Shown: positions 12,836 to 59,722 of the stretch, piece after piece | Layout of the letters: each line of letters begins with the position of its first letter | Numbering within the stretch: the stretch's first letter is position 1 | Assembly: GCA_020975725.1 (NCBI GenBank) | Contig: QXJR01000007.1 | Span: 186,001 to 250,000, forward strand | Length of the DNA: 64,000 nucleotides | Direction of reading: 5' to 3' | Source of the DNA: Picocystis sp. L7 | Lineage: Eukaryota; Chlorophyta; Picocystophyceae; Picocystales; Picocystaceae | Position numbers and translations under genes: made by a program | The notes under the pieces: generated by a model | What the model was told of the DNA's origin: nothing | What the model saw: the letters and a program-made list of their open reading frames with translations, nothing else | The model's database searches: none

Positions 12836-13190
12836 CCTCGAGCGCAGCACGCGCAGCACGACGTTCGCCGATGAGATCGTCCTTCGGTCGGGACGCTCCT
12901 CCCCCCCCCCTTCGGAGAAGAAACTCCCTCGGGGAGGAGCCCGGACCCCTCCCCCCAATCCCCCCCGGGCCGAAGGAGCCGAGAAGAAACTCCCTCGGAT
13001 TCGAACGTTGGCGCGTCGGCTTCCGCCCCTGGAGCAAAAGGGACCCCCTTGCCGGGACCCCCCTCGGCCCGACGAGGATCGCGTGTTCGAATCCCACGAA
13101 TCCTCGTCGGGAAGGGACGTCTGTCGGGGTGGATGTCCGGTCCGTTCCGACCTGCGATCGAGTCCATTTCGACGCGGTGGGTTCGAAGCG
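12836..13190. promoter_or_regulatory. bidirectional promoter FIGNL1/ASPM
   Basis: 355 bp between divergent start codons. It contains a direct repeat of GAGAAGAAACTCCCTCGG (12916-12933 and 12980-12997), poly-C runs, and three TTCGAA-containing motifs, near 12999, 13085 and 13181, the last ending just before the ASPM ATG. Two cell-division or recombination factors may therefore share control, which is inference from the arrangement only. Confidence 0.45.
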
Positions 13191-43711: not shown

Positions 43712-44487
43712 CGTGCTCGTTCGGCTTTGAATGCTTGGAGAAGATCTCCAATGCACCGAGACCATCCCCTGCCCTCCCCTCCCCTCCCTTTGTCTCTCCC
43801 TCTCCCCCTCTCGACCCCGGTGGGGGAGACGAAGAAAAGGCGGTTCGAACACTTGAACCGAACGACCGTTCCCGTGGCTGTAGCATCCCCAACCGCCCAG
43901 GAGCAAGGGAGGGGGGATGCGAAGTGCATTTCGAGCGTACGAAACGAAAAATATAAAAGGAACGGTTGTCGGGGATAAGCGTGTCCGTGGAGACGGGAAA
44001 ACGCAAAGATAATCGCCTACGCGCCCCCGCACTAGGGTCGGATCCCAAGACCCTGGCCAAGGAAGACGGTCCCTTCTCCGTGGCGCCAATACGCCATCCA
44101 CATTGCTCTACCCCGAGCGAAAAGTAAAGGGTGCGAATGGAGGAGGCAAGGGTTGCCTACAACCACAGAACCCTCCACCTCGAAACATGCACGTGCGCAA
44201 TCGAACCACGGCGGTTCGTCGGATCGTGCCAAGCCCACCCCCCGAACTGCCGATGCAAGGACCCTTGGAGCAATACAAAACCAACGGCGTGCTCGTTTCT
44301 TGCCATCCTACGTTCTTCCCACGGGCGGGCCCATCCTCGCGGGGGCCGGGTGGAAGCCATGATGCCTCCCCTCCCTTGTGCACGGGAGCTTCCTTGCTCT
44401 GTCCATCTTGCGGTCTTGTATTCGTCTTTCTCACGGCGTGCGCCCATGGTGTTCAAGCCAGGCACGTTTCGCCGAGGGGGTCCACGG
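43712..44487. promoter_or_regulatory. upstream region of secreted-protein gene, up to retrotransposon
   Basis: 776 bp with GGTTCGAACACTTGAACC near 43834 and pyrimidine-rich tracts. No gene is supported. The last four bases (ACGG) form the left copy of the retrotransposon target-site duplication. Confidence 0.4.
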
Positions 44488-45206
44488 TGTAACGGCCAGC
44501 GAGGCCTCCCAGGGTCCCTACGAGACCCTGGCCTACGGGACCAGACCCCCGGGACCCCATATGGATGAAGGGCAATGGTGTCCCCTCTCAAACAACGGCT
44601 GTACCGTTCCGGAACTGGAGTCAGTCCCCTTGGGGGTTCGTATTGAAGGAAGGTCGCCCCGGTTCAGAACGGGTTTTCCTGTAAGGGACATCGAGGATTT
44701 AGACCGAAACAGACCGACTAAAGGGGACCGACCCCATCTCTACCTTTGCTTCTGGAAGGTAGGGCTGGGGTGCTGGACGGTGTCGATGCGACTGCCAGCT
44801 CACGTTCGCCCCGGGGCGAACGCAACGGACGGTCAGATGTGACTCTAGGGAGCACGTGGGCTGCCATGGCACCCCTGTTGCCCCAATTCCAACCGCCAGT
44901 GAGAGGCGGTGAGAGAGAGGTAGACCCTTGGTCCCTCTTTGCTTTGTGATACACTTCTTCTACTTGCCAAGCCAAGTGCGCAACACGCCTCCTCCTCCGA
45001 CCCTGACCAACGCAACAGGAGAAACCACTTGGACGCTCCAGCACGTCCGTTCTCGCCTCCCACGCCGGCCGAGGCTCCTTCAACTCAAGGGAGAAGAGAG
45101 AGAGAAGAAGACCCCGGTACAAGGGGTGAGAAGCCCGTCCTCCACGAGACCCTCGTCACCAAGAGTACGTGTGTTGGGTCATTCAACCACGGACGCAAGT
45201 CTAATA
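44488..45206 (+). repeat. 5' LTR of the retrotransposon
   Basis: 719 bp, starting TGTAACGGCC and ending CAAGTCTAATA. It appears identical to the 3' LTR: the short ORFs in every frame are the same in both. It contains a perfect 20-bp palindrome at 44803-44822 and an 8-bp stem with 7-nt loop close to its start. Confidence 0.93.
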
Positions 45207-45252
45207 CTGTCGAAGCCTACTCTGGGGAGAAGACGGCGTTTCGTTTGCAAGA

Positions 45253-46509
45253 ATGGACGATACGGACCACGCCACAAGAATGAGCACTCTCCGAAGAGAG
45301 CTTGAACAAGAACGAAGCGAAGGGCACATCCTTCGTGGAAGAGTCGCTGATCTTGAAGCCCAAGTTGAGGCTCTTCAAGCCATACCACCTGATGGTAATG
45401 AATTGGAAGTAGCGAAAGACCTTCTCGATGGTGATGACTCTCCAAGTACCGATCAAGGCGCTCCCGCCGAACCCATCAGTTTGTCCGAAGAAAAGGGGCT
45501 CCCACACCTCACAAGTTTGTATGGGACAGCATTGCAAGACTCCAAGAACATACAAAAGGTCTCCCTTGAAAAACCTACCAAGTTCACTGGGCTGGAGCTT
45601 GAGGAAGACCCCTACTCCCTCACCTATTGGTATAGGGATGTGTTGTGTTGGTGCCAGGCCTACGCCTTCGATCGACCGAAGGAACAATTGGTCCTAGCCA
45701 TCAGTCAAGCACTTGGAGGAACAGCCAAGTCCATGGTCCAGAACCTCATCATGAAAGACCCTGATGCTTTGCAATCGGTGGAGGACCTGCACTCATATTT
45801 GAAAAAGACATTTCAAAACCAAGATCCAGGCCCCGAAGCGTGGCGCGAGTTCCACACCACCAGAATGAGAAGGTCAGAAAATGTTTTGCACTTTTTGAAC
45901 AGGTTGGTGCAGCTCAGCTTTGTGGTGAATGCCAGCAGCTCTCCTGTTTGCCGTACTCTGTCCGAGCATGACATATCAGCCAGGCTACAACATGGTCTGC
46001 CAACATACCTCCAAAAGGCTTTGTATAAACACCTGGAGCATCTAATTGATGTTGATAAGGTTCCAGACATGGAGCCAGGCAACCTGGCAGCCACCATATT
46101 CAAACTTGAACGCGAGGCGGCTGAACCAACAAGGAAGGATATCAAACAGCCTGATGAAAAGTGGAGAGGACGATCGCCCGCGAATCGCGAGTATCGACCG
46201 ACACCGCAGCGAGCGGCGTACCGCTCTGCAGCCATAGCAGCTGCCATGCCAACTCAGCAGCAACAAACAGCAAGAAGCGATGGATACCCCAAGCGTCAGC
46301 ACAAGCGGTTTGATGATTTGGAAGAGGAACAGAAAAATGCGATCATCAAAGTCCAAACACAGCTGGCCAGCAAGCCACTTGGGGGTAAGCTTACCCCAGA
46401 GGAAAAGAACCTTTGCCTTGCACATGCTCTGTGCCAGCGATGCCGTCGATATGGTCATGATCAATCAGTCTGCAAGATGGCATCAGTGATGGGCGCGCCA
46501 AAAAACTGA
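45253..46509 (+). CDS. gag: retrotransposon gag-like protein
   Basis: A 418-residue ORF starting 46 bp after the left LTR. An N-terminal coiled-coil-like stretch (TLRRELEQERSEGHILRGRV) is followed by a retrotransposon-gag-type helical region (FTGLELEEDPYSLTYWYRDV through VLHFLNRLVQL). Near the end a CCHC zinc knuckle, CQRCRRYGHDQSVC, is present with C-x2-C-x4-H-x4-C spacing. The gag stop and the pol start overlap as TGATG, an arrangement that could allow coupled termination and reinitiation; the mechanism is inference. Confidence 0.85.
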   Translation: MDDTDHATRMSTLRRELEQERSEGHILRGRVADLEAQVEALQAIPPDGNELEVAKDLLDGDDSPSTDQGAPAEPISLSEEKGLPHLTSLYGTALQDSKNIQKVSLEKPTKFTGLELEEDPYSLTYWYRDVLCWCQAYAFDRPKEQLVLAISQALGGTAKSMVQNLIMKDPDALQSVEDLHSYLKKTFQNQDPGPEAWREFHTTRMRRSENVLHFLNRLVQLSFVVNASSSPVCRTLSEHDISARLQHGLPTYLQKALYKHLEHLIDVDKVPDMEPGNLAATIFKLEREAAEPTRKDIKQPDEKWRGRSPANREYRPTPQRAAYRSAAIAAAMPTQQQQTARSDGYPKRQHKRFDDLEEEQKNAIIKVQTQLASKPLGGKLTPEEKNLCLAHALCQRCRRYGHDQSVCKMASVMGAPKN

Positions 46510-49500
46510 TGGCTCTCCGTCCGGTAACGCAGGTTACCGCGACGGAGCCGGGAGCGAAAACTGCAGCCGCCCCGGTGAACAACAGTAGAGATCCAGTCTG
46601 CTTACACTCATTGACTAATGTGAAACCAAGACAGGAATTTCTTGCTGCAGAAACATACTTTGGAAACAGGAAACAGAGAATTAGAACCCAGGCCTACCTG
46701 GATACTTTAGCAAGTCACTGCTTTATCAGTGAAAAGCTTTTCAAGAAACTGCAGGATGCTGACCCGTGCCGTTCATCTTGGCAGTATACGACAGACAGCG
46801 TAGATTTCACAGTGGCTGTGGGCCAAGATGTTCACACTGCACCTGTGATTGAAGCTACGTTTACGATCGATGGATTCCGCACTCGCATGAACTTTGGAAT
46901 AGCACCTCTGGAAACGTTCGATTGTATCCTGGGAGCCACCTTCTGCCATCAGCATTTGGAAGCACTGGACTGGCAGCAACACAGAATGATCCTGCGCGGA
47001 CGCAATGGAACCAAGTTTACAGTGTATGGGGATCATCAGTTCCTGTCTTCAAGGAAACTGGACCTCATCGTGCCCCGGAGCGAAGCTCGCGCAGCAGTCA
47101 AGGACCCAGGCTGCTTGTTACTCATGATACAGCCTATGGACCCCACTCCAGAAATGATAAGTGAGGAAGAAGACTTCAGCAGAGTGCGCAGCCAACTCAG
47201 CGATGCATGGGACCTGGATGACCAAGACCAGGCCCGGCTAGATGACCTGATAGAAAAGAAATATAAGCACCTGTTTCAGCCTCGTACCGAGTTACCGCCC
47301 GAACGAGTACCAGGAGAGATGTTCAAGGTTCAATTGATGGAGGGCGCTACGCCCCAATATCGTAATTACTACCGGCTGTCCCCGCAGCAGCAGACTGCAC
47401 TGAAGGAACTGATCGCCGAGTACGTAAACGCAGGTAAGATGGACCTGTGTGCTGGATCCAGCTGGGGAGCCCCGGTCATACTGGTTCCCAAGAAGGACGG
47501 CGGATGGCGAGTCGTTTTCGACTACCGCCTTCTCAACAATGTTACGGTCAAGGATCGCTATCCTCTGCCGAGGATCGATGACTATCTGCAGAACTTGAGG
47601 GGAGCCAAGTACTTTTCATCGCTTGATGCGATGGATGGCTTCCATCAGATCAGAATGGACCCAGATGATGTGGACAAGACTGCTGTGGTGACCCCCTTTG
47701 GGTCATTTGTATGGAAGGTCATGCCGATGGGGGCTGCGAACGCGCCATCGATGTTCCAGCGCATGATGAATAGAGTGTTTGGGCACCTGCTATATTTAAA
47801 AGTGTACATGGATGACATCTTAGTACACTCAGAGACAAAACAGCAGCACTTTCAGCATCTGGAGGAGTTCTTCGCCGTATGCGAACAAGCCGATATTCGG
47901 CTCAAGCGATCAAAGTGTCACTTTTTCATGAGCACCCTGGAATGGGTAGGCTTTCGCATTCGAGACGCGCAGTTGGCCTGCACAGGCCGTCTCCTCGATA
48001 AGATCCAGCAGTTCCCGCGCCCCACATCGCAGCGCGAAAATATGGCTTTCCTGGGGTTATGTCAGTTCTACATGCGGTTTGTTCCTCACTTTGCGGAGTT
48101 GGCTTCCCCACTTACAGAGTTGAACCAAGCATCATTGAAATACAACTTTGCTGCATACTGGAAAGAGCCACAGGAGAAAGCCTTCAAAAAACTGGTGACA
48201 GCTTTAAATAGCCCACCAGTACTGGCTCTCTTTGATGAGGACAAACCCATCAGGGTAGAGACAGATGCCTCAGATATTGGTATGGGTGCGTCGCTGATGC
48301 AGCAGGATGAGCAAGGCACATGGCGACCCGTCGAGTACTGGTCGAAGAAGTTCAACAGCGCGCAACAGAACTACCACCCTGCAGAAAAGGAAACCTGCGC
48401 GATACTTTATGCATTACAACACTGGAGACATCTTTTATTTGGGCAGAACTTTACGGTCATCACCGATAACAAGGCCAGTCATTTTCTCAATACCAAGGCC
48501 ACTGAACAACTGTCCCCCAGAGAAATGAGATGGGTGGAGAAGCTGGCTTACTTTGCTCCATTCACTGTGGAGTACAGACCTGGCTCTGAAAATATTGGAC
48601 CGGATTATCTCTCTCGCCATTCAGCCCAGGTTAGGAAAGGAACAGTATATTGTATACTTGATTTGTGTGCTGGGATGGGCACTACGCTCCGTGCACTGGA
48701 AATGGTCATACCAGAAACTGCAGACTACACCTTGGACTACATTGCAGTTGAGAAAGACGCGGACTGCAGAAGCGTCATCCAGCGCGTGTTCAATCAAGTG
48801 CGCCTGGCTCGGCCAGGCCTGTTCGCTCGCAAGGACATCTTCCGATATGGTGACGATGTTGCTGCTCTGGCGCATCGTCGAAAGCTTCCCCCAGTTCACC
48901 TGCTCATTGCAGGTGTGCCTTGCCAGCCGTTCTCGCGCGCAAACACAGATGCAAGTAAACCTCCGCTGGGCCTTTACGATGATCGAGAACTCTTTACAGC
49001 TGTGGGAAAACTTCACAGACGACTACGATCGCCAGACTTTGTGATAGAGTGTACCCCGTTTGCACCCCACCTGGAATCTCACTTGGACACAATCTCCCAA
49101 TGGTTTGGGGAACCCAGTACTGAAGACCTTTCTCAGTATGGAGCTCAAGCACGGACCAGGCTCTGTTGGACCTCGCTGCCACCAGCCCCGGTATCAATGG
49201 GCACCACGAAACATACTCCCCTCACATGGCAGGAATGTTTGGATCCAGGGGCACACGCCCCAAAAGACGCTTTCGACAGGCCTCGTCTTAAATGCCCCAC
49301 CCTGATGGCCAGCGCACGGTCCCATAGTGACCGCTCGCGATCCACCTGGGTACACGGCAATGACGGGGAGCTCCGTCCGCTGACCACCAGCGAGCGTGAG
49401 CGACTGGTAGGAGTACAGGCAGGTGACACTGCTGCAGTTGATGTCAGTGAAGCCGGTCGACAGCGCATGTGCGGCAACGCCTTTCCAGTAGGATGGATTG

Positions 49501-51494
49501 CCCACATGTTACTCCGCTGGATACACCACACACGGACGCTTCGACCGCTAGCCGGCCGCAGTCCTGATCGGACTGTGTGTGGCTCGATTGCGTCTCTAAA
49601 TACCTTCAGCCCGATACCATCCGCTTCAGAAGCTACTGGTCAAGACATACCTCCCATACTGGATCGCATACGCATCGCAGCAAAAAGAGACCAGAGTTAT
49701 CAGGACATGCTCAGCGCACCACCGCAAGACTGCACTGTCCAAGACAATCTCCTGTTCACATCAGGACCACACTCACAGCCAGTACTTGTGGTACCTGCTG
49801 ATAATGGTATAAGGCAAGAGTTACTACACCTGGTACATGACCCCAGGCATTTTGGAAAAGATCGAACCTTTACGGAAGCTGCCAGACACTTCACCTGGAA
49901 GGACATGCGCCACCACGTACGACACTTCGTGGCAAGATGCCCAGTATGCCAATTGCAGAAACCAGGTAACCGTACTCGGCACGCATTGTTGTGTCCAGAA
50001 CTAAGGTTCCACCCGTACCCGTTCCACACTGTAGTGATGGATGTGGTGGAAAACCTGCCACTTACTGCCCAAGGCCATAATGCTGTGCTTACAGTCGTGG
50101 ACAGGTTTACGAAGTTTGCGATATACGTACCAATCCATTCCACTTGGAGCGCGTACCGGCAGGCCCAGTGCCTGATGGACCATCTGGTGTACAGGTATCA
50201 CACCCCAGTGCACATTCACACTGATAATGGACCGGCGTACCGGACCCTGTTTAAGGCGTTCTGCGCAGCGTTGGGCGTGCGACATGTGACGGGCACCCCA
50301 TACCATTCACAATCCCAAGGTGGGGCAGAGAGGCAGCACAGAACCTTACTGCAGACGCTACGCTCTACCTGTTCAAACAAGCATCAATGGGATGTCTATT
50401 TACAAGCAGCAGCTCATGCCTACAATGACTCTGTGCATGCTGCTACTGGTCACTCACCATTTGAATTATTGTATGGCTGCCCATCCAGGTTACCTTGGCA
50501 TCTACAACTGCCCAACAGTGGACCGCACCAACACATGGATCAGGTCACCACTTATGACCAGAGGGTGTCAAACCTCCTGGAGCAGCACCGTGCAGTTTAC
50601 GAAGCGGTCCTGAAGAATCTGAGCAGGGCTGCAGAAAGCATGGGTAATCTGAAATCCAAACGGCGCCCCAAAAGCTTCGCAGTTGGCGACAAAGTAAAAG
50701 TCCAGTACGGACTGAAGGGCCCGACCGACAAACATAAGCTGGATCCTTACTATGTGGGCCCCTATGTGATCAAGCAAGTGCTACAGAATGGTGCTTACCA
50801 ATTAGATCTACCCCAAGGATCAGCCTTCTCCGATCGTATACACGTAGACAGACTGGAACCATGGATTGATTCAGATCTTACGCTCTTCCCGATGGATGAG
50901 CATCTACAGCCAGCAGCAGCACCGCTTCCGGATACTCGGGCCATGCAGGATGAGACTACAGCGTACCGCATACGCCGATATCTACTGCGGGACTATTCAG
51001 CCTTCCCTGCGCAGCCCGTACGATACTGGGTTGAGGGAAACATGGCTGATCCGTCGCAACGCTACTTCTGGGTAGATGAGACAGCAGCCTTATTGGAGGA
51101 ATTCCTCCCCTTGGAGGAACAAAATGGATGCATACCAGAGCAAGGGATTTTGCCAGCGAACTTCGATGCCGTGCAGACTCATAAGAAGACAACTTATTTG
51201 CAGTCTCCGAACCCAATCATGGCGAACACCTGGCCATATCATAAGCTACCGTACCAGACACGCCGGCGCCCGCCCTCTCCACCAAGGACAACTCTACTGA
51301 ACAGTGTGGTACAGGAGCTGTTTTATTTGGAGGGACAGGACCAACCGGCATACTTTCAGGGGATGGTGCATGCATACCAAGACAACCAGTATGAAGTACT
51401 ATGGACAGATGGGAAAAAGGATTACTATCAGGAAGAACAAATCAAGGCTATGCTGTATGACCCAGTTTCGTACATATATGACTTCCAGCTCTAA
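46509..51494 (+). CDS. pol: retrotransposon pol polyprotein with cytosine-5 DNA methyltransferase domain
   Basis: A 1661-residue ORF. Parts in order: aspartic protease-like region (about residues 55-150); reverse transcriptase (about 270-470) with WRVVFDYRLLNNVTVKDRYP and the YMDD box; RNase H (about 570-690) with VETDASDIGMGA; a cytosine methyltransferase (about nt 48640-49540); H2C2 zinc finger and integrase core (D, D and E in VVMDVVE, HTDNGPAYR and GGAERQH); a GPY/F-like stretch. The methyltransferase has motif I LDLCAGMGTT, IV GVPCQPFSRAN (catalytic Cys), VI VIEC (Glu), VIII QARTRLCW, IX LTTSERERLVGVQAGD and X GNAFPVGWIA. The last ~50 residues, YFQGMVHAYQDNQYEVLWTD and following, resemble a Tudor-like barrel. 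Activity of the methyltransferase is not shown. Confidence 0.92.
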   Translation: MALRPVTQVTATEPGAKTAAAPVNNSRDPVCLHSLTNVKPRQEFLAAETYFGNRKQRIRTQAYLDTLASHCFISEKLFKKLQDADPCRSSWQYTTDSVDFTVAVGQDVHTAPVIEATFTIDGFRTRMNFGIAPLETFDCILGATFCHQHLEALDWQQHRMILRGRNGTKFTVYGDHQFLSSRKLDLIVPRSEARAAVKDPGCLLLMIQPMDPTPEMISEEEDFSRVRSQLSDAWDLDDQDQARLDDLIEKKYKHLFQPRTELPPERVPGEMFKVQLMEGATPQYRNYYRLSPQQQTALKELIAEYVNAGKMDLCAGSSWGAPVILVPKKDGGWRVVFDYRLLNNVTVKDRYPLPRIDDYLQNLRGAKYFSSLDAMDGFHQIRMDPDDVDKTAVVTPFGSFVWKVMPMGAANAPSMFQRMMNRVFGHLLYLKVYMDDILVHSETKQQHFQHLEEFFAVCEQADIRLKRSKCHFFMSTLEWVGFRIRDAQLACTGRLLDKIQQFPRPTSQRENMAFLGLCQFYMRFVPHFAELASPLTELNQASLKYNFAAYWKEPQEKAFKKLVTALNSPPVLALFDEDKPIRVETDASDIGMGASLMQQDEQGTWRPVEYWSKKFNSAQQNYHPAEKETCAILYALQHWRHLLFGQNFTVITDNKASHFLNTKATEQLSPREMRWVEKLAYFAPFTVEYRPGSENIGPDYLSRHSAQVRKGTVYCILDLCAGMGTTLRALEMVIPETADYTLDYIAVEKDADCRSVIQRVFNQVRLARPGLFARKDIFRYGDDVAALAHRRKLPPVHLLIAGVPCQPFSRANTDASKPPLGLYDDRELFTAVGKLHRRLRSPDFVIECTPFAPHLESHLDTISQWFGEPSTEDLSQYGAQARTRLCWTSLPPAPVSMGTTKHTPLTWQECLDPGAHAPKDAFDRPRLKCPTLMASARSHSDRSRSTWVHGNDGELRPLTTSERERLVGVQAGDTAAVDVSEAGRQRMCGNAFPVGWIAHMLLRWIHHTRTLRPLAGRSPDRTVCGSIASLNTFSPIPSASEATGQDIPPILDRIRIAAKRDQSYQDMLSAPPQDCTVQDNLLFTSGPHSQPVLVVPADNGIRQELLHLVHDPRHFGKDRTFTEAARHFTWKDMRHHVRHFVARCPVCQLQKPGNRTRHALLCPELRFHPYPFHTVVMDVVENLPLTAQGHNAVLTVVDRFTKFAIYVPIHSTWSAYRQAQCLMDHLVYRYHTPVHIHTDNGPAYRTLFKAFCAALGVRHVTGTPYHSQSQGGAERQHRTLLQTLRSTCSNKHQWDVYLQAAAHAYNDSVHAATGHSPFELLYGCPSRLPWHLQLPNSGPHQHMDQVTTYDQRVSNLLEQHRAVYEAVLKNLSRAAESMGNLKSKRRPKSFAVGDKVKVQYGLKGPTDKHKLDPYYVGPYVIKQVLQNGAYQLDLPQGSAFSDRIHVDRLEPWIDSDLTLFPMDEHLQPAAAPLPDTRAMQDETTAYRIRRYLLRDYSAFPAQPVRYWVEGNMADPSQRYFWVDETAALLEEFLPLEEQNGCIPEQGILPANFDAVQTHKKTTYLQSPNPIMANTWPYHKLPYQTRRRPPSPPRTTLLNSVVQELFYLEGQDQPAYFQGMVHAYQDNQYEVLWTDGKKDYYQEEQIKAMLYDPVSYIYDFQL

Positions 51495-51522
51495 TTCAGA
51501 TCGTCGCAGTGAGCCGGGAGAG

Positions 51523-52241
51523 TGTAACGGCCAGCGAGGCCTCCCAGGGTCCCTACGAGACCCTGGCCTACGGGACCAGACCCCCGGGACCCCATATGGA
51601 TGAAGGGCAATGGTGTCCCCTCTCAAACAACGGCTGTACCGTTCCGGAACTGGAGTCAGTCCCCTTGGGGGTTCGTATTGAAGGAAGGTCGCCCCGGTTC
51701 AGAACGGGTTTTCCTGTAAGGGACATCGAGGATTTAGACCGAAACAGACCGACTAAAGGGGACCGACCCCATCTCTACCTTTGCTTCTGGAAGGTAGGGC
51801 TGGGGTGCTGGACGGTGTCGATGCGACTGCCAGCTCACGTTCGCCCCGGGGCGAACGCAACGGACGGTCAGATGTGACTCTAGGGAGCACGTGGGCTGCC
51901 ATGGCACCCCTGTTGCCCCAATTCCAACCGCCAGTGAGAGGCGGTGAGAGAGAGGTAGACCCTTGGTCCCTCTTTGCTTTGTGATACACTTCTTCTACTT
52001 GCCAAGCCAAGTGCGCAACACGCCTCCTCCTCCGACCCTGACCAACGCAACAGGAGAAACCACTTGGACGCTCCAGCACGTCCGTTCTCGCCTCCCACGC
52101 CGGCCGAGGCTCCTTCAACTCAAGGGAGAAGAGAGAGAGAAGAAGACCCCGGTACAAGGGGTGAGAAGCCCGTCCTCCACGAGACCCTCGTCACCAAGAG
52201 TACGTGTGTTGGGTCATTCAACCACGGACGCAAGTCTAATA
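51523..52241 (+). repeat. 3' LTR of the retrotransposon
   Basis: 719 bp, matching the 5' LTR throughout by eye. A purine-rich segment (GTGAGCCGGGAGAG) directly precedes it and may be the polypurine tract. The perfect palindrome recurs at 51838-51857. ACGG follows as the right target duplication. Confidence 0.93.
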
Positions 52242-52917
52242 ACGGCATCCCAAGGCACGAACAGGCCTCGCGCCGTCGAGGGAGTCAAGATATCCACAGA
52301 GAAAGTTCAACGACGACCGTTACGCATTTGATCGCTTCGAAAGCGTCATCACAAAGACCAGTCCGCACGGTTGTCAACGGTCATCCCGCGAACTTGAACG
52401 CGCATGCAACGTGCAAGCCTTCCGTGGAGGGCGCCTTATGGCGCGCATGCCCGTGCCATGGAAGGGATCGAAGGACACGAAGGACGCACGATCGTTGTCG
52501 TCCACCTCGCATTCCTCGTCGTTTGGAGGATGGAGTTGCGCGAGATGGAGACCGTAAAACGCGATGTGTCCGAGGGAGCGGTCCTCGGCTTGTCCGCCTC
52601 GGACGCGATACCACGGCCCCACCTTGGTTCCGTTCTTCTCTTCGTCCCTCTTCGAACCGTCCGAGCGAAGCGTTGTTTGTTTCCATGCTTGCATCCCCCT
52701 CGGCCCGTTCCTTCCGCGGGTCCACGCCAGCATCCTGCATTTGCCCGGTGTCCATGGGGTGAGGTCTTCCTCCATGCAGGTGTGTCTACCATTCCGCCTT
52801 GGGTGAAGCACGTTGGGCTTGCTTGCAAGGACGTGGGTCAGCTTGCCCCTCGTGGGTTCCATGGCTCCACCACGTGGTGTCCTTGGATGGGGAAATCGAA
52901 TTCATTTCCACGTGGCG
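52242..52917. other. intergenic between retrotransposon and ELM2-SANT gene
   Basis: 676 bp with no recognisable gene. Open frames on both strands overlap and lack family resemblance. It should hold the promoter of the ELM2-SANT gene, whose 5' structure is itself uncertain. Confidence 0.35.
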
Positions 52918-53925: not shown

Positions 53926-56900
53926 TCACAAGGACAAGTACTCCTTCGTGCGACGCACCAAGAGATGGAGGTACTGAAGGTCTCGGCCAAAGTCCTTGCC
54001 GCGCATCTGGGATATGGTCTCCAGTACAGGAAGGAGGAGCTTGCTGAGCTGCTCCAGCTCCAGCTGTGTTCCAAGCATAGCCATAGATGAGGGCTCTCCG
54101 CCATTTGAAGGACGCATTGGAGTGGTATACATGTCATCCGCTGCACCGAAGGCATCTCTCGCGGCAAACGTGTCCTTGGCCGCCGGTTGCAAGCAACGGC
54201 GCAGAGTCAGATACATCGTCGCCAGCACATTCTCTGAAATAAAGAAAAGACGGGAGAGGATCCTGTCCTGGTGCTTGAGAGCGGAAGCTACATCCCGCGG
54301 AGTGACCCGTTGTGGATCCACCCCCTCCATTTTTAGCGCTTCCACTGCCTCGGCAGCCAGCTCCAACCCCATGTTTTCGTCTGCAGGATCGATCGCCCCT
54401 GCAAGGGCATCCCTCTGCTCAGCATGGTTGAACAAATCATCCACTGTAGTCCTGAGGATATCAACCATAAGCCGGAGTGTGGGTCTGCTGCCACTGCCTT
54501 CTGCATCCACTACCTCCGAGTGAGATACAGATCGGATGCATGGGTAAATGTCCCCATCCATTGACGCCACGCCACGCAAGTAGCGGGCAATGTTGCATCG
54601 AACCCCCCATGCTCGATCCATGGTCTCTGCCATGGAGGCCTCCTGTCCCATTGCTGCAGACAGCCTCTTCGCCACCGGGCTATCCCTTGGGAAAAATTGC
54701 CAGGCCAGACTGTACATGGATGCTTTGAGAACGGGAGGCGTTCGAGATGGATCCTTGCCCTGCACATAAGCAGTCAATGCTGACGCAAGCAAGATCAGCT
54801 CCAGCTCCTGATCTAGGGGGAGGGTGGCTGCACCCATCGCACGACCGGCGAGGCAACGGACCAGGACACGTTGCTGAGCGGATACGAAGGTAGCTGCCTG
54901 TTCGGCGACCTCCCTTGAAGTCGGTAGGGCTGCTATGATGGCCAAAGCAAGTCGCAGCGAAGCGCACAAGACTCTTCGACGCCTGCCCACTTGCGAGCCT
55001 GGCACTCCAGGAGCTATTTCTGGCTCAGTGGAAATGGCACGGAAATCGGCCAGAGAGGTGAGTGCTCCACTGGCCGCCAGCTGCTTAGCACCATGTGGAA
55101 CACGGGAGGTCGCCAGTTGCAGCAGCAATCCGAGGCCAGCCTCCAAAGCAAAAGAAGCCCTCCAAGCAAGTGCAGCTGGTGCACTAAAGACATAAGCAGG
55201 TGATCTGGGGAGATCCGCCAGAAAAGCTTGGGGTGCGCCAGTATGAAACACACCATCCACAAGCATGGGGTCCAAACTGACCAGGCTTGCCATGATGCAG
55301 CGCGAAAGACTGCGAATGGCCGCACCACTGCCACCCAGGTTGCCCTCGGATGCATCCCGTGCCAGCGCTGGCAATAACCAATGCGCTGATCCACGGATGA
55401 GCGATACAACTCCACCTATCAGCATCTCGCTTTCTACCCGTGCACGGTTGTATTGCAAGAAGGCAAGCAGAGCACCATACAGTGGTGTAGAAGTTGTCTC
55501 TCCACGGCGCTCTGTGCTTGCTTTCACGGCTGCAAGCAACTGACGGAGTAAAGCATGGCTGGCCGCTGGCGCAGGAGCCCCAGGGGAGTCTGGATCGAGC
55601 ACTAGCTGGGCCACCAGCGTTTGCACTGCTAGAGCAAAAGGACGAGCGAGTGCTGCCCCGTCTTGCGCCTGCAGAGTACCAGGCAGTACTGTTAGAGTGG
55701 ATGAAAGAAGAGGAAGCACCACATCCAAAGCACTCCCGATGTCAACCTGAGAGAGCCCAGCAGCCTCCCTGTATAGATGGTACCTGCGAGAGACAGCAAT
55801 TTCAACAGAAAGCTGCCATGCCTTGGCCAGCCCCCTTACAACACTCCATACTAGTGCATATCTATTCCATTCAGCAGCATACTGAACCGCTGCTAGGACT
55901 GCCTCCTTGAGAGGTTCACGAGCACCGCCTTGGCCAACCAAACCCTCTGCTCTGTTTTGAAGTGTAGCGCCCAACAGATGAATATCGATCTGTTCGCTAT
56001 TGCCCTGCATTCGCATGGTAGGATCATTTAGGACTGTCTCAATTCCAAGCTCGTCTGCTGCCCTGCGTGCAGTTGCAGAGAGCTCAAGCCCTCCAGGTGC
56101 CGTGGGAATGGACTCGCAACAGAGTTCTAAAACCTCATCAGCAGCACTCCTTGTCTGATCTGATTCTGTGCGCATAACTTCTAGGCCTGGAGAAAAGCTG
56201 CCAGGTACACCGTCTTCCTCTGCTGGTGGAAAGAAAAGAGCCCCTAATATTCGCACAAGTAGGGTGCGATCCACGGGATCCGATTCATCCGCATCATGAA
56301 GAGCGAGAGCGGCCAGCCGAAGCAGCCATGACCGCTGCTGCAGGCCGTACTCAAAGTTTTCCTCCGAAAGCGGAGTTTGAAATATCACTGGCATGTGTGG
56401 GGCAAAGTAACTAATTCGATCCCTCAAAAGTTCATGCATTGCTGCACGAGTTGCACAATCTTCGCATAATTGATACAATAACTCGAGGCATCTTGCATGC
56501 AGGATTGGTGCCTCCAGCAGGCCAATATCCGACTCTGCTAACAAAAGCACAGGTCTGAGACAACCGTCAAATGCGCGCGGATCATACAGCGCAAGTGCAG
56601 AAGCACCAGGAGCTGCAGATACTACATCAAAACCTAGGAGGTAATGTGCAAAGCTTGGTGAAGGGGAAGAGCGTAAACTTGAAACAATCAGGTCAAGCAG
56701 CAAGGATGCCCTTTCATCAACTGTCTCGGCCTCGTCCTCGGGTAATCCACCCGCTTCTGCTGCCGGAGGGGCAATGGTGAGGTGGTCTTGTGTACCCGTA
56801 ATTGCGGACTCAAGACCTGCCTCTAGGGCAGCTGCAAAGCCTGTCACAATAGGGAACGTCCCGTTTGTTTCTGAAAGCAAGCTTGAGAGCAATCGCTCAT

Positions 56901-59556
56901 CGCTGCGAGAATCGAGCTGCAGAGTAATTTTGATGGCTTTAACTTGCAGTGAAGGATTGTGCGCATAGCTAACATAGCTCAAGAGGGCGGCTGCACACGA
57001 TGCATCTCTCAAAAGTGCCCGGTCCACTGTTGGTGGCGCCCCTCCCCCCCGTGCATTCCTTAATGCAGTGGAATAAGGCCCATCGCAAGCAAGAGCTAGC
57101 TGAAGAACGCTCAAAGCTGATCCAACTGCCAACTCCATCCAGGCACCTTCGTGGCTGCTGAGTCTTGCCCGCGCAAGTTGCTCACTGCCAATCGACAGAA
57201 TCCCCAGAAGGGCTCTGAAGACGCTTCCTTCTTCCAAAAAGTCCACCATTATCATGGACGCTGGGGTATCTAGCTCCTGCAAGGACTTTGCTGACACTGC
57301 AGGTTCAAGGATTTTTTCAAAGTTCTCAAGGCAGGCATTAGCCACCTGCCATCGCTCACTCAAGTTTTTGTAGCCTCTGCGCAAGCAAGGCGCAAACACA
57401 ACATTACGCACAAAGGCAAAGTAATGAGCTCTTGCTCGTCCAAAGTCAGGGAGCGAAGCCACGGAGAGCAGCTTGTTCAGGAGCTTTACAAAGGACAAAG
57501 TTTCCCCGTAGCTCTCCTTTTTTGCCTCCTCTTCTGCAAGTCTAATTGCCAGATCTGTACGTCCAGCCCCAATACCCAGGTTCCCGAACGTGTCCAAAGC
57601 ATCCCAAACCTGGGTGCAAGCGGATGGAGAGGTAGCCATTGCCCCAATGAGTGCATACACCTCCACTTTGATCACTACCGGGGTCGGAAATTGCACAATC
57701 TGCAGGAGAACTTCAAGCGGGCTTGAATTTTGCCTCTCCAACAGCCTGCGGGTCCACCCCGGGACCAGTTCTGGAGCTGCCTCGTAGCAGCTCCTAATGG
57801 CAATCAAGTAAGCTGACAATCCTGCAGCGTCCTCTGGTGGCATGACCCCGGTCAGGCTCTTCTCGTGCCTTCCGGAGGAAAGAACTGAAGCGTAGCGCTG
57901 GCAGTAGGCCTCGAGCGATCGAAAGAGTATGTCCCAGCGTATGTTATTGGGCGCCCCAGGCGGTGGAGAAAGCAACCTCGTGAAGACTTCGTTCGCAGTT
58001 TCTGCCCCACCGGTGGAGATCGCAGCAACACACTGCAAGTACGGAACAAGCAAGCCTAATGTAGGTTCACCTTCTGCGGCGTAGTCCAGGAAGCTCCAGT
58101 CCCTGATGGGGGGGCAGGTGGTAGAGAGGGCGGGATCGCGATCATACACAGCTGCCAAGGCAGCCAAAAGGCTTCCAAGACTTGTGCGCGGAACATTCTC
58201 CATCGGTCCTAGTGCCCTGTACCCTGATCCCAACGTTGGTGCTACATCTTCCCCTGCGTCCCTGAGCTTGGATACAAGCTGCGCACCTCGCTGAGAAGAA
58301 AGCAGTGCGGACAGAACCTTGTGACTGGCAGCAGCGTACTCCAGCTGCATGGTGGGAAGATCGTCTCGAAAGGTTGTGGATCTGTACACAGCTTCCATGG
58401 TGGCCAGTGCACCTGCAGAGATGGCATTTTCAAGTGCAGGCATGGCTGAAGTATCTTCAGAGGTTGGCAACACCAAGGCCCATGCCATTGTGGCAATGGC
58501 GAGGAGTCCTCCGGAGAGCGTCCTAGCGTTTCCATCGTCATTGTTCCCTTTCCAGGCCATCTTGGCGGCCAGCCCTGTATCGGCCGCCATGTGCGCATGT
58601 CTTTCCTGGACCTCTTCTTTCCAAGCTTTCCACTTTTGCTTGGCGTCATTGTTTCCTTGTCCCTCTCGGATGTATCGATCTTCTTCTTGTCCACCTGTTC
58701 CCTCGTCGCCTTCTTCTTCCCCGTCCATGATTCCAAATGCGCGTACAAGTGCCAAGGTGATCACATACGCATGCTGCAAATGGACTCCATCGTCTTGGTC
58801 TGCAAGTCTTTCGCATCTTCCGCACAGTTCTGCGGCGAGATCCGCGATGCTGCGCACCTCTTCCAGCGGCATCATTCCAGTTTGTATGGTACATGCGAGG
58901 TAGATGCATTCGCATGCCAAAGTGATTTCTCGTTGCAAGAGTACGCTCCTCGACACCAGCGATCCTCCAGGTCTCGTCCTTGCGTGTTCGAGGTTCGAAC
59001 CAGGCGACACCGTCCATGCTGCGTCTCGCACGTGAGCCACGAGCCTCGCCACCAGTCCGCTCCCATGCACGCGCTCGGTGAGCAAGGCAGCGTTGAAACG
59101 CTCCACGTAGTCGTCTGTGTCCCTGTCTTCTCCTCGGTCCCCAAAGCACGCGATTTGTGCGCCAAGGAGCATCCGAATCGTCTGCAGAAGCGCCAGCTTC
59201 TCGGCATGGTATGCGCCAGCCGCATCGGGAAAGAAGGATTCCAAGGCCAAGCCACGCGTGGAGGCGTAGGCATCGGCTTGCTGCTGCACGTGGCGGAGGT
59301 AGGAGGTCGCCTCGGCCTCGCTGGTGCGCAACGAGGCGGCCAAGGCGCGCGCAGCGGCGACGAACGGCGGTGCTTCCTTCCCTCCTTCTGGTCCGTCCGT
59401 CGAAGGTGGCGTCGCAGAGCTCCCAGGTGCGAGCGAACGCAGCAGAAACGGACGTGCTCTGGCCAGATCCGCTCTGGACGTCGATCGGAGGCGATCTTGC
59501 GCGCCCAAGGCCCGCGAAGCCGTCGCCAGGAGGCGCCGATGCGCGTCCATCGCCAT
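53926..59556 (-). CDS. NUP205: inner-ring nucleoporin NUP205/NUP192-like, single exon
   Basis: A 1876-residue, almost entirely alpha-helical protein encoded by one uninterrupted 5.6-kb ORF. Length and character fit NUP205/NUP192 (about 1700-2000), a large alpha-solenoid of the inner ring of the nuclear pore that binds NUP93. Supporting segments are AALLSYVSYAHNPSLQVKAI, RCLELLYQLCEDCATRAAMH, LLRLAALALHDADESDP and the C-terminal LSKLLLPVLETISQMRGKDF followed by LQYLHLLVRRTKEYL. There is no SH3-like insertion that I can recognise, which argues against NUP188, though the two are hard to separate by eye. The start MAMDAHRRLLATASRALGAQ is the first Met of the frame. The transposase array begins 161 bp upstream of it. 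Confidence 0.72.
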   Translation of the reverse strand: MAMDAHRRLLATASRALGAQDRLRSTSRADLARARPFLLRSLAPGSSATPPSTDGPEGGKEAPPFVAAARALAASLRTSEAEATSYLRHVQQQADAYASTRGLALESFFPDAAGAYHAEKLALLQTIRMLLGAQIACFGDRGEDRDTDDYVERFNAALLTERVHGSGLVARLVAHVRDAAWTVSPGSNLEHARTRPGGSLVSRSVLLQREITLACECIYLACTIQTGMMPLEEVRSIADLAAELCGRCERLADQDDGVHLQHAYVITLALVRAFGIMDGEEEGDEGTGGQEEDRYIREGQGNNDAKQKWKAWKEEVQERHAHMAADTGLAAKMAWKGNNDDGNARTLSGGLLAIATMAWALVLPTSEDTSAMPALENAISAGALATMEAVYRSTTFRDDLPTMQLEYAAASHKVLSALLSSQRGAQLVSKLRDAGEDVAPTLGSGYRALGPMENVPRTSLGSLLAALAAVYDRDPALSTTCPPIRDWSFLDYAAEGEPTLGLLVPYLQCVAAISTGGAETANEVFTRLLSPPPGAPNNIRWDILFRSLEAYCQRYASVLSSGRHEKSLTGVMPPEDAAGLSAYLIAIRSCYEAAPELVPGWTRRLLERQNSSPLEVLLQIVQFPTPVVIKVEVYALIGAMATSPSACTQVWDALDTFGNLGIGAGRTDLAIRLAEEEAKKESYGETLSFVKLLNKLLSVASLPDFGRARAHYFAFVRNVVFAPCLRRGYKNLSERWQVANACLENFEKILEPAVSAKSLQELDTPASMIMVDFLEEGSVFRALLGILSIGSEQLARARLSSHEGAWMELAVGSALSVLQLALACDGPYSTALRNARGGGAPPTVDRALLRDASCAAALLSYVSYAHNPSLQVKAIKITLQLDSRSDERLLSSLLSETNGTFPIVTGFAAALEAGLESAITGTQDHLTIAPPAAEAGGLPEDEAETVDERASLLLDLIVSSLRSSPSPSFAHYLLGFDVVSAAPGASALALYDPRAFDGCLRPVLLLAESDIGLLEAPILHARCLELLYQLCEDCATRAAMHELLRDRISYFAPHMPVIFQTPLSEENFEYGLQQRSWLLRLAALALHDADESDPVDRTLLVRILGALFFPPAEEDGVPGSFSPGLEVMRTESDQTRSAADEVLELCCESIPTAPGGLELSATARRAADELGIETVLNDPTMRMQGNSEQIDIHLLGATLQNRAEGLVGQGGAREPLKEAVLAAVQYAAEWNRYALVWSVVRGLAKAWQLSVEIAVSRRYHLYREAAGLSQVDIGSALDVVLPLLSSTLTVLPGTLQAQDGAALARPFALAVQTLVAQLVLDPDSPGAPAPAASHALLRQLLAAVKASTERRGETTSTPLYGALLAFLQYNRARVESEMLIGGVVSLIRGSAHWLLPALARDASEGNLGGSGAAIRSLSRCIMASLVSLDPMLVDGVFHTGAPQAFLADLPRSPAYVFSAPAALAWRASFALEAGLGLLLQLATSRVPHGAKQLAASGALTSLADFRAISTEPEIAPGVPGSQVGRRRRVLCASLRLALAIIAALPTSREVAEQAATFVSAQQRVLVRCLAGRAMGAATLPLDQELELILLASALTAYVQGKDPSRTPPVLKASMYSLAWQFFPRDSPVAKRLSAAMGQEASMAETMDRAWGVRCNIARYLRGVASMDGDIYPCIRSVSHSEVVDAEGSGSRPTLRLMVDILRTTVDDLFNHAEQRDALAGAIDPADENMGLELAAEAVEALKMEGVDPQRVTPRDVASALKHQDRILSRLFFISENVLATMYLTLRRCLQPAAKDTFAARDAFGAADDMYTTPMRPSNGGEPSSMAMLGTQLELEQLSKLLLPVLETISQMRGKDFGRDLQYLHLLVRRTKEYLSL

Positions 59557-59722
59557 GGCGATCGATCCACGTCCAAACCCACCTTCTCCCCCTTCCCTTC
59601 AGGACAGCAGGGATAGGGTGTCCTTGTGAGGACCACACAGACCCGTGGTTGGACCAGAGACGGCAGCGTCCACCTCAACAATCCAAGAGGGAAAAGAGGG
59701 AAAGAAAGGAGGGGGGGCAGTA

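What the first reader, a model, noticed from the sequence alone, without database searches (positions are those of the whole stretch)
48640..49540. Cytosine-5 DNA methyltransferase embedded in a Ty3/gypsy-type retrotransposon pol
Between RNase H and integrase, in the same frame, lies a roughly 300-residue C5 methyltransferase with motifs I, IV (PCQPFS), VI (Glu), VIII (Q-x-R-x-R), IX and X in canonical order and the catalytic residues present. Retroelements are normally silenced by cytosine methylation, so one that carries its own methyltransferase could mark its own copies, compete with host control or keep the host tolerant. From memory, cytosine methyltransferase capture by retrotransposons has been reported in dinoflagellates and in the charophyte Klebsormidium, so the concept is known; the position within pol, the RT-RH-CMT-IN order and the host lineage here may be new.
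Basis: partly seen in the sequence, partly recalled or inferred. Interest (0 to 1): 0.9.

Follow-up and report, generated by a model that had tools for sequence, protein, structure and literature searches.

The report
DNA-methylating enzyme inside jumping gene
A recently inserted jumping gene in a small-genome green alga carries its own DNA-methylating enzyme in the protein that copies and inserts it, and the enzyme's key parts are kept across three deep families of the element, so a parasite normally silenced by DNA methylation here brings its own methylation machinery.

Summary
Confirmed. The window holds a full-length Ty3/gypsy LTR element (44488-52241; LTRs identical over 719 bp, 4-bp target duplication). 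Its 1677-aa pol runs RT-RNaseH-C5 methyltransferase (CMT)-integrase in one open frame. The CMT is DNMT3-like by profile search (DNMT3A 2.7e-11; HhaI 8e-6), with motifs I-X in normal order. It is not a stray insertion: 127 scored copies in the 20.5-Mb host genome carry it (113 without a stop inside it), and two deeper families (B, C) have it in the same slot. In the RT tree all sampled bearers, plus one type lacking catalytic motifs, form one clade; one old capture is simplest, but the CMT tree leaves two captures open. CMT dN/dS is 0.06-0.10 in 4 of 7 pairs with a finite ratio. In family A, pol looks expressed by -1 frameshifting (A AAA AAC at the gag stop, covarying stem), so the enzyme would be made as Gag-Pol, beside RT and integrase. 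I infer, not shown, that it methylates the element's cDNA or new insertion. DNMT-bearing retrotransposons are known (de Mendoza 2018, including a Klebsormidium gypsy). Not seen described: this LTR clade, its frameshift coupling, a nested non-catalytic lineage. No methylation was measured.

The parts
44484..44487 (+). target-site duplication ACGG, left copy
   Evidence: flank comparison
44488..45206 (+). 5' LTR, 719 bp, starts TG
   Evidence: identical to the 3' LTR
45205..46509 (+). gag ORF; first ATG at 45253; CCHC zinc knuckle CQRCRRYGHDQSVC near its end
   Evidence: no Pfam match at 0.001
46500..46506 (+). A AAA AAC slippery heptamer, directly before the gag stop; proposed -1 frameshift site
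   Evidence: same place in 16 of 17 other elements examined (15, L033; family B element L013 lacks it); several of the 16 are near-identical copies
46511..46549 (+). stem-loop downstream of the heptamer
   Evidence: window fold -29.7 kcal/mol, z -3.3 against simple shuffles; covariation across subfamilies
46461..51494 (+). pol ORF, 1677 aa
47484..47960 (+). reverse transcriptase (YMDD at 47805-47816)
   Evidence: PF00078 1.6e-37
48159..48554 (+). RNase H
   Evidence: PF17919 9.5e-36 and PF17917 6.9e-35
48633..49565 (+). DNMT3-like cytosine-5 methyltransferase domain (motif I to X about 48648-49496)
   Evidence: PF00145; DNMT3A in PDB by profile; motif positions
49806..49964 (+). integrase H2C2 zinc-binding domain
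   Evidence: PF17921 5.8e-14
50019..50309 (+). integrase core; D1194, D1255, E1290 (D-D-35-E; E lies just past the Pfam stretch)
   Evidence: PF00665 8.1e-13; residues
50715..50861 (+). Tf2-1-like SH3 domain after integrase
   Evidence: PF24626 3.1e-7, 30.8 bits against a cut-off of 30
51523..52241 (+). 3' LTR, 719 bp
52242..52245 (+). target-site duplication ACGG, right copy

Best explanation
An intact-looking, recently inserted Ty3/gypsy LTR retrotransposon whose Gag-Pol polyprotein includes a catalytically complete-looking DNMT3-type cytosine-5 methyltransferase between RNase H and integrase. SHOWN by sequence: architecture, copy number, conserved motifs, purifying selection, near-identical LTRs in several subfamilies, one clade of the sampled bearers' reverse transcriptases (with one nested non-catalytic type), and a conserved frameshift signal in family A. 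INFERRED: pol, and so the CMT, is made as a Gag-Pol frameshift product and travels with RT and integrase in the particle. There it methylates cytosines (probably CpG, by analogy with DNMT3A and SymbioDIRS-Dnmt3) on the double-stranded cDNA or on the fresh insertion, so that new copies enter the genome already carrying the host's 5mC mark. This would let them pass as self DNA or limit their own expression and harm. The domain was most simply captured once, before families A, B and C split. I put the identity part at about 0.97 and the cDNA/new-copy methylation step at about 0.4.
For: Domains and order. DNMT3A/B/C are the 26 best of 47 PDB sequences by profile. In a CMT tree the retroelement domains plus DNMT3A separate from a bacterial Dcm and host DNMT2 at 99/98, with long branches. 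127 family-A copies scored, 9 family-B loci, 19 near-full plus 3 partial family-C loci. Catalytic positions invariant in 14 CMTs of families A-C (loci had been picked for holding PCQPFS, so that motif is so by construction, the others not). CMT dN/dS 0.10 (window vs L007), 0.06 (window vs L008), 0.07 (L013 vs L016, 63 N/127 S); across family-A subgroups synonymous sites are saturated while CMT dN is 0.20-0.45, and the linker after the CMT has higher dN (0.37-1.02). LTR-like direct repeat pairs in 17 of 18 further large loci, each at least 99.07% identical, 9 of them 100%. One RT-RH clade 99/97. Frameshift heptamer and covarying stem: 8 of 15 pairs changed on both sides, 0 of 500 shuffles as high. 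CpG o/e 0.70-0.79 in 13 CMT elements or pol ORFs against 1.02 in 3.5 kb of a non-CMT gypsy and a host-window median of 0.93. Two SymbioDIRS-Dnmt3 domains methylate CpG de novo in yeast (PMC5890265, section 10 read).
Against: No methylation, expression or enzyme data exist here. The yeast test of the nearest known analogue, KnitGypsy-Dnmt3, showed no activity (called inconclusive by its authors, PMC5890265). CpG transitions between near-identical copies exceed a random null clearly in only one of five groups (A1, 2.05 vs 1.26-1.67; pairs not independent). One 3.9-kb host window (0.59) and the host DNMT1 ORF (0.72) have CpG o/e as low as or lower than the elements. A nested lineage without the catalytic motifs (L042 type, 27 of 33 rows covering most of the segment at 90-100% identity) is multi-copy too, so catalysis seems not to be needed for spread in that lineage. 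In the CMT tree DNMT3A falls inside the retroelement CMTs (85/95), which would mean two captures; holding them together is not rejected (p 0.376). Motif VI reads E-C-T or E-C-V, not E-N-V; one near-identical copy (L008) did not match the ECxxFA pattern. L027 vs L030 and L035 vs L037 give CMT dN/dS 0.30 and 0.32 (7 N/7 S and 2 N/2 S).
Confidence: 0.55

Rival explanations
1. The CMT acts in trans on host chromatin at or near the target site (marking or seeding heterochromatin, or tuning host genes), rather than on the element's cDNA.
For: The CMT is tethered to integrase in pol; copies are concentrated on two contigs (50 of 127 on 11.6% of the genome); the C-terminus carries an SH3_Tf2-1 domain and in L013 a sub-threshold Tudor-like match.
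Against: Pfam finds no chromodomain PF00385 in the window's pol, L013, L027, L033, L039 or the part of L042 held. The enrichment on C3/C4 is mostly of broken copies (8 of 50 open against 47 of 77 elsewhere), which fits slow removal as well as targeting.
Confidence: 0.2
2. The domain is kept mainly for a structural or RNA-directed role (spacing RNase H from integrase, binding cDNA or RNA), with DNA methylation secondary.
For: The L042-type lineage, nested inside the RT clade of the bearers, keeps a 217-aa segment without catalytic motifs in the same slot and is multi-copy with near-identical segments; another gypsy pol fills the slot with a SET domain.
Against: Catalytic positions stay invariant in the 14 CMTs of families A-C compared, which a structural role alone would not require.
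Confidence: 0.2
3. The host benefits: the elements supply the genome's only non-permuted DNMT3 activity and are tolerated or domesticated for it.
For: Of 121 PF00145 matches in the genome, 110 lie in family A, B or C elements, 4 beside a gypsy RT, 6 in five host genes (DNMT1-RFD-BAH, DNMT2, chromo-CMT, PWWP-DNMT, DRM) and 1 is unassigned; no free-standing unpermuted DNMT3 was seen.
Against: The copies sampled are mobile elements with near-identical LTRs, not a fixed single gene; an intron-rich host DNMT3 could have been missed by the exon-wise search, which scored 123 of 177 candidates; one 148-aa ORF fragment on C20 was not assigned.
Confidence: 0.1
4. Neutral passenger: the CMT is inert sequence carried along by chance.
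For: None beyond the lack of functional data.
Against: dN/dS 0.06-0.10 in 4 of 7 pairs with a finite ratio, motif invariance, retention in three deep families.
Confidence: 0.03

Closest known systems
KnitGypsy-Dnmt3 (Klebsormidium nitens; de Mendoza et al. 2018, PMC5890265: sections 7, 9, 10, 11 read, the first part of the text up to midway in section 6, and passages)
   Same: A gypsy-type pol with a Dnmt3-class CMT in the Pol ORF, key residues kept, Ka/Ks < 0.2, green-lineage host
   Different: The paper's legend gives it DIRS-like repeats; this element has plain direct LTRs and a 4-bp target duplication. Its domain order was not visible (figure not held), and no named Klebsormidium protein is among the rows, so direct kinship is untested.
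SymbioDIRS-Dnmt3 and SymbioLINE-Dnmt (dinoflagellates; same paper)
   Same: Retroelement-borne CMT; SymbioDIRS-Dnmt3 is Dnmt3-class and methylates CpG de novo in yeast
   Different: Other retroelement orders: tyrosine recombinase in DIRS, LINE endonuclease; the LINE CMT is an orphan class
Ty3/gypsy LTR retrotransposons with post-integrase SH3 or chromo domains (recalled: Tf1/Tf2, chromoviruses)
   Same: LTR-gag-RT-RH-IN plan, H2C2 + rve + SH3_Tf2-1
   Different: Extra CMT between RNase H and integrase; no chromodomain found by Pfam
DNMT3A/DNMT3B catalytic domain (PDB 6brr, 6u8w and others)
   Same: Best PDB matches; co-linear from before motif IV through motif X
   Different: Motif VI ECT instead of ENV; no companion domains of DNMT3 in pol by Pfam; fused into pol

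Membership tests
Ty3/gypsy LTR retrotransposon | Direct LTRs with target-site duplication | tested here: met
   719-bp identical LTRs, TSD ACGG
Ty3/gypsy LTR retrotransposon | RT - RNase H - integrase order with rve D-D-35-E | tested here: met
Ty3/gypsy LTR retrotransposon | Aspartic protease (D-T/S-G) | tested here: inconclusive
   The window pol reads D-T-L and has no Pfam protease match at 0.001; family B has DTG and weak RVP_2; L033 weak gag-asp_proteas
Chromovirus | Canonical chromodomain PF00385 after integrase | tested here: not met
   Not found in the window pol, L013, L027, L033, L039 or the part of L042 held
DNMT3 family C5-methyltransferase | Motifs I-X in non-permuted order with PCQ, E, QxRxR, GN | tested here: met
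DNMT3 family C5-methyltransferase | Closest to DNMT3 rather than DNMT1/2 or bacterial Dcm | tested here: met
   (DNMT3A/B/C 2.7e-11 to 5e-9; another 'Cytosine-specific methyltransferase' 2.5e-8; DNMT2 4.8e-7; HhaI 8.3e-6); tree, long branches
DNMT3 family C5-methyltransferase | ENV in motif VI | tested here: not met
   ECT/ECV in families A-C; the catalytic Glu is kept
DNMT3 family C5-methyltransferase | Methylates DNA | not testable with these tools
KnitGypsy-Dnmt3 | DIRS-like repeat arrangement around gypsy genes | tested here: not met
   plain LTRs in the window; plain direct repeat pairs in 17 of 18 large loci
KnitGypsy-Dnmt3 | Sequence kinship of RT and CMT | not tested
   no named Klebsormidium protein among the rows; its sequence is not held

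The most novel reading that the evidence does not exclude
In this alga the only canonical, unpermuted DNMT3 enzymes belong to a clade of Ty3/gypsy retroelements that deliver the methyltransferase inside the Gag-Pol particle, so that new copies enter the genome pre-methylated. The RNase H-integrase junction is an 'epigenetic writer slot' that can hold a DNMT3, a decayed DNMT3 (L042 type) or, in another gypsy, a SET domain.
Probability: 0.3. Interest if true: 0.82.

Novelty: new variant of a known kind. Interest (0 to 1): 0.6.

Why it matters
DNA methylation normally silences retroelements. Here three deep families of one gypsy clade have kept a DNMT3-type writer under selection in one small (20.5-Mb) genome, with many copies whose LTRs are near-identical. 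Related elements that differ at the same slot (catalytic CMT against the non-catalytic L042 type) live in the same nucleus, which makes a natural controlled comparison: per-copy long-read 5mC calls could test whether retroelement CMTs mark their own new copies, a question the 2018 report left open.

Tried and rejected
1) Exchange of the CMT module between families. CMT identity between families A and C (46-50%) is higher than RT (38-42%) or IN (30-37%), the reverse of the pattern within A. AU tests do not reject congruent trees (RT with A+P0019+L042+C p 0.463; CMT with A+B p 0.127), so I do not claim exchange.

2) The first RT tree rejected 'CMT bearers as one clade' (p 3.8e-7), but P0042 and P0043, which I had labelled CMT-less, do carry a truncated CMT and L042 is nested. 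Six rows (P0042, P0043 and four long branches P0055, P0057, P0059, P0060) were dropped. In the IN tree the bearers without L042 are also rejected as one clade (p 0.004); I did not test IN with L042 included. In the CMT tree DNMT3A falls inside the retroelement CMTs, but A+B+C as one clade is not rejected (p 0.376).

3) L042 spacer as decayed CMT: profile comparison E 0.009, probability 4%; 13 of 2000 shuffles score as high, and one window of its own RT scores higher; none of 5252 candidates scored E <= 0.001. Suggestive only.

4) Deamination footprint: weak. The composition scripts stopped early with errors: after L031, before its last group.

5) Viral contigs: 18 pattern matches, none a relative. 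Prokaryote genome contigs: 2 matches, one a mis-binned copy of the element and one an ordinary Dcm-like gene.

6) Chloropicon-type telomere: 0 matches; plant-type TTTAGGG telomere repeats present at contig ends.

Full report
OBSERVATION. The ORF at 46461-51494 is 1677 codons without a stop. hmmscan puts RVT_1 at aa 342-500, RNase H at 567-698, DNA_methylase (PF00145, whole-protein E 1.5e-6, 28.3 bits, cut-off 22; no single stretch passes 0.001 alone) with its best stretch at 734-829, Integrase_H2C2 at 1116-1168, rve at 1187-1283 and a Tf2-1-like SH3 at 1419-1467. A single-sequence PDB search gives 16 sequences, all DNMT3A, best 7.2e-6. A profile of 14 CMT domains from this genome gives 47 PDB sequences, the best 26 all DNMT3A/3B/3C (2.7e-11 to 5e-9), then another 'Cytosine-specific methyltransferase' (2.5e-8), DNMT2 (4.8e-7), HhaI (8.3e-6) and DRM2 (2.3e-4).

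ANATOMY. Identical 719-bp LTRs lie at 44488-45206 and 51523-52241, with a 4-bp duplication ACGG outside them. A gag ORF (45205-46509, first ATG 45253) ends in a CCHC knuckle. Gag and pol overlap, pol being in the -1 frame. The last gag codons are CCA AAA AAC TGA: an A AAA AAC slippery heptamer directly before the stop (46500-46506). The same heptamer-plus-stop arrangement stands in 15 of 17 other elements and in L033; the family-B element L013 lacks it, and family C was not examined. Downstream a stem-loop folds well (window z -3.3; six other family-A elements z -2.3 to -4.9; L013 +0.6; simple shuffles). On a gapless 54-column alignment of 12 elements (8 distinct rows) 89.2% of 120 cells pair and 8 of 15 pairs change on both sides; 0 of 500 shuffles reach either figure and slid versions stay at 24-42% paired. 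One measure, further pair types, is not exceptional (95 of 500). The structure was taken from one of the rows, which favours cells paired more than double-sided changes. I conclude that in family A pol, and so the CMT, is very probably made as a Gag-Pol frameshift product.

COPIES AND AGE. The host genome held is 20.5 Mb in 30 contigs. Family A: 127 of 190 candidates were scored, all 127 matching, at 53-100% identity. 113 of 127 have no stop within the matched domain; 58 of 127 are listed with an open frame of at least 1660 aa, but three of these hold a stop in the domain, leaving 55 (stops by eye). Family B: 9 loci at 76-100% to L013. Family C: 19 near-full and 3 partial loci at 69-100% to L041. 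Target duplications were checked only in the window. These loci and the window span six family-A subgroups whose CMTs are only 53-72% identical to one another, so several old sublineages look recently active. Nine family-B or other loci of 6-8 kb, not centred on elements, showed no pair; L041 (family C) was not examined.

SELECTION. NG86 counts on 16 pairs; the CMT ratio is finite in 7. It is 0.10 and 0.06 (window vs L007, L008), 0.07 (L013 vs L016; 63 nonsynonymous, 127 synonymous changes), 0.06 (L023 vs L026, but dS 3.6), 0.30 and 0.32 (L027 vs L030, L035 vs L037, on 7/7 and 2/2 changes) and 0 (L039 vs L040, one change). Between nine pairs of family-A subgroups synonymous sites are saturated or nearly so while CMT dN is 0.20-0.45, RT-RH dN 0.07-0.31 and the linker after the CMT 0.37-1.02. 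The CMT is thus constrained, though less than RT.

ORIGIN. In an RT-RH tree of 25 rows the sampled CMT bearers (families A, B, C and public-assembly proteins such as P0019 and P0020) plus L042 form one clade at 99/97 against 8 other gypsy elements. Outgroups were only those that my own search returned. One capture before the A/B/C split is simplest. The CMT tree itself is less clear: retroelement domains plus DNMT3A separate from a bacterial Dcm and host DNMT2 at 99/98, but DNMT3A falls between family B and the rest (85/95), on very long branches; one clade of A+B+C is not rejected (p 0.376). The L042 type (RT 53% to the window; 27 of 33 rows cover at least 177 of 217 residues) sits inside the RT clade (88/81 in RT; 99/97 in IN). 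In the same slot it has a 217-aa segment without PCQ, E or QxRxR motifs and without a PF00145 match at 0.1. It may be a decayed CMT, but sequence evidence is only suggestive.

HOST. A nuclear rbcS (C6:225854-226177), a chromodomain-containing CMT, a PWWP-DNMT, a DRM and TTTAGGG telomere repeats point to the green lineage; that rbcS is plastid-encoded in haptophytes is general knowledge. The species is not identified, and chlorophyte against streptophyte is not settled. Chloropicon-type telomeres are absent (compared with passages of PMC6731263). Closest proteins elsewhere come from unnamed public assemblies (ENA, JGI, Logan) and, among proteins with a species name at high identity, from scaffolds labelled Pavlova lutheri in EukProt; given the green-lineage markers here, that label or a culture mix-up deserves checking. 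Host DNMT genes: DNMT1 with RFD and BAH (L009), DNMT2 (L010), chromo-CMT (L011), PWWP-DNMT (L012), DRM (L020) (DNMT2 by eye). Of the 121 PF00145 matches, 81 fall in family A, 12 in B, 17 in C, 4 beside a gypsy RT, 6 in those five host genes and 1 (C20:532869, a 148-aa ORF) is unassigned. No free-standing unpermuted DNMT3 was seen, but only 123 of 177 candidates were scored and introns could hide exons.

FOOTPRINT OF METHYLATION. CpG observed/expected is 0.70-0.79 in the window element, nine further family-A elements (which stopped after L031) and three family B/C pol ORFs, against 1.02 in 3.5 kb of a non-CMT gypsy and a median of 0.93 over 14 host windows (range 0.59-1.07; 12 of 14 above 0.793). 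Three host DNMT ORFs give 0.72, 0.90 and 0.83, so low values also occur in host genes. Transitions at CpG between near-identical copies exceed a random null clearly in one of five groups only. This fits some CpG methylation of CMT elements but does not show it, nor who did it.

MECHANISM. Made with RT and integrase in one polyprotein, the CMT is best placed to act on double-stranded cDNA or the fresh insertion. The benefit could be to look like methylated self DNA, or to damp expression and harm. De Mendoza et al. propose the same for SymbioDIRS and showed de novo CpG activity in yeast for two SymbioDIRS-Dnmt3 domains but not for KnitGypsy-Dnmt3 (PMC5890265: sections 7, 9, 10, 11 read, the start of the text up to midway in section 6, passages elsewhere).

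PRIOR ART. Nine paper searches were run. The only primary report of DNMT-bearing retrotransposons that I recognised in their listings is PMC5890265; PMC12344493 and PMC6338049 (passages only) cite it, and PMC9998398 (passages only) reports no DNMT3 in green algae of MMETSP. PMC6338049 says in passing that DAM- or DCM-encoding Ty3/Gypsy and DIRS elements occur in several groups including green algae, without details in the passages seen. So the kind is known; this clade, with true LTRs, the RT-RH-CMT-IN order, frameshift coupling and a nested non-catalytic lineage, I did not find described in those searches.

Noticed in passing
L020:1937-3142 (-), G000 C20 about 156.4-157.6 kb: Host DRM-type permuted methyltransferase: 7.5e-38 to PDB 4onq ('DNA methyltransferase') and 9.1e-29 to DRM2 (7l4h), aligned over residues 41-390 and 62-387 of 402. 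PMC12344493 (passage) calls DRM restricted to streptophytes, so either the host is a streptophyte or DRM is older.
   Followed up: partly
L042:1225-1980 (+); 27 of 33 rows: Gypsy type nested in the CMT clade with a non-catalytic 217-aa segment in the CMT slot; its open frames reach 2672 aa in several copies.
   Followed up: partly
P0041 (public-assembly protein): Gypsy pol with a SET domain (PF00856, histone methyltransferase type) between RNase H and integrase, the same slot as the CMT (position by eye).
   Followed up: no
G000 contigs C3 and C4: Hold 50 of 127 family-A copies on 11.6% of the genome, mostly broken (8 of 50 in a long open frame without a stop in the domain, against 47 of 77 elsewhere): element graveyards, reminiscent of outlier chromosomes in other small green algae.
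   Followed up: partly
L043 (PUNI01000121.1): A 'Rhodobacteraceae' MAG contig in GTDB is really this retroelement (97% identity over the CMT): eukaryotic contamination.
   Followed up: no
P0006, P0024, P0031-P0034, P0036, P0037, P0044, P0048: EukProt scaffolds labelled Pavlova lutheri (a haptophyte) carry family A-like and, by eye, family C-like elements; mislabelled culture, contamination or real sharing.
   Followed up: no
46701-46721 and family A pols: The protease active-site motif reads D-T-L instead of D-T-G in the window, L023, L026 and L031; L013 (family B) has DTG; the pattern found nothing in five other pols.
   Followed up: no
L031/L032 (C11:532-548 kb) and C4:1048257, 1055406, 1062555: Tandem elements: two family-A copies 6605 bp apart with identical repeats, and three family-C copies exactly 7149 bp apart.
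   Followed up: no
12459-17501 (+) and 53926-59598 (-): Long host ORFs that by eye look like an ASPM-type IQ-repeat protein and a large nucleoporin; not searched.
   Followed up: no
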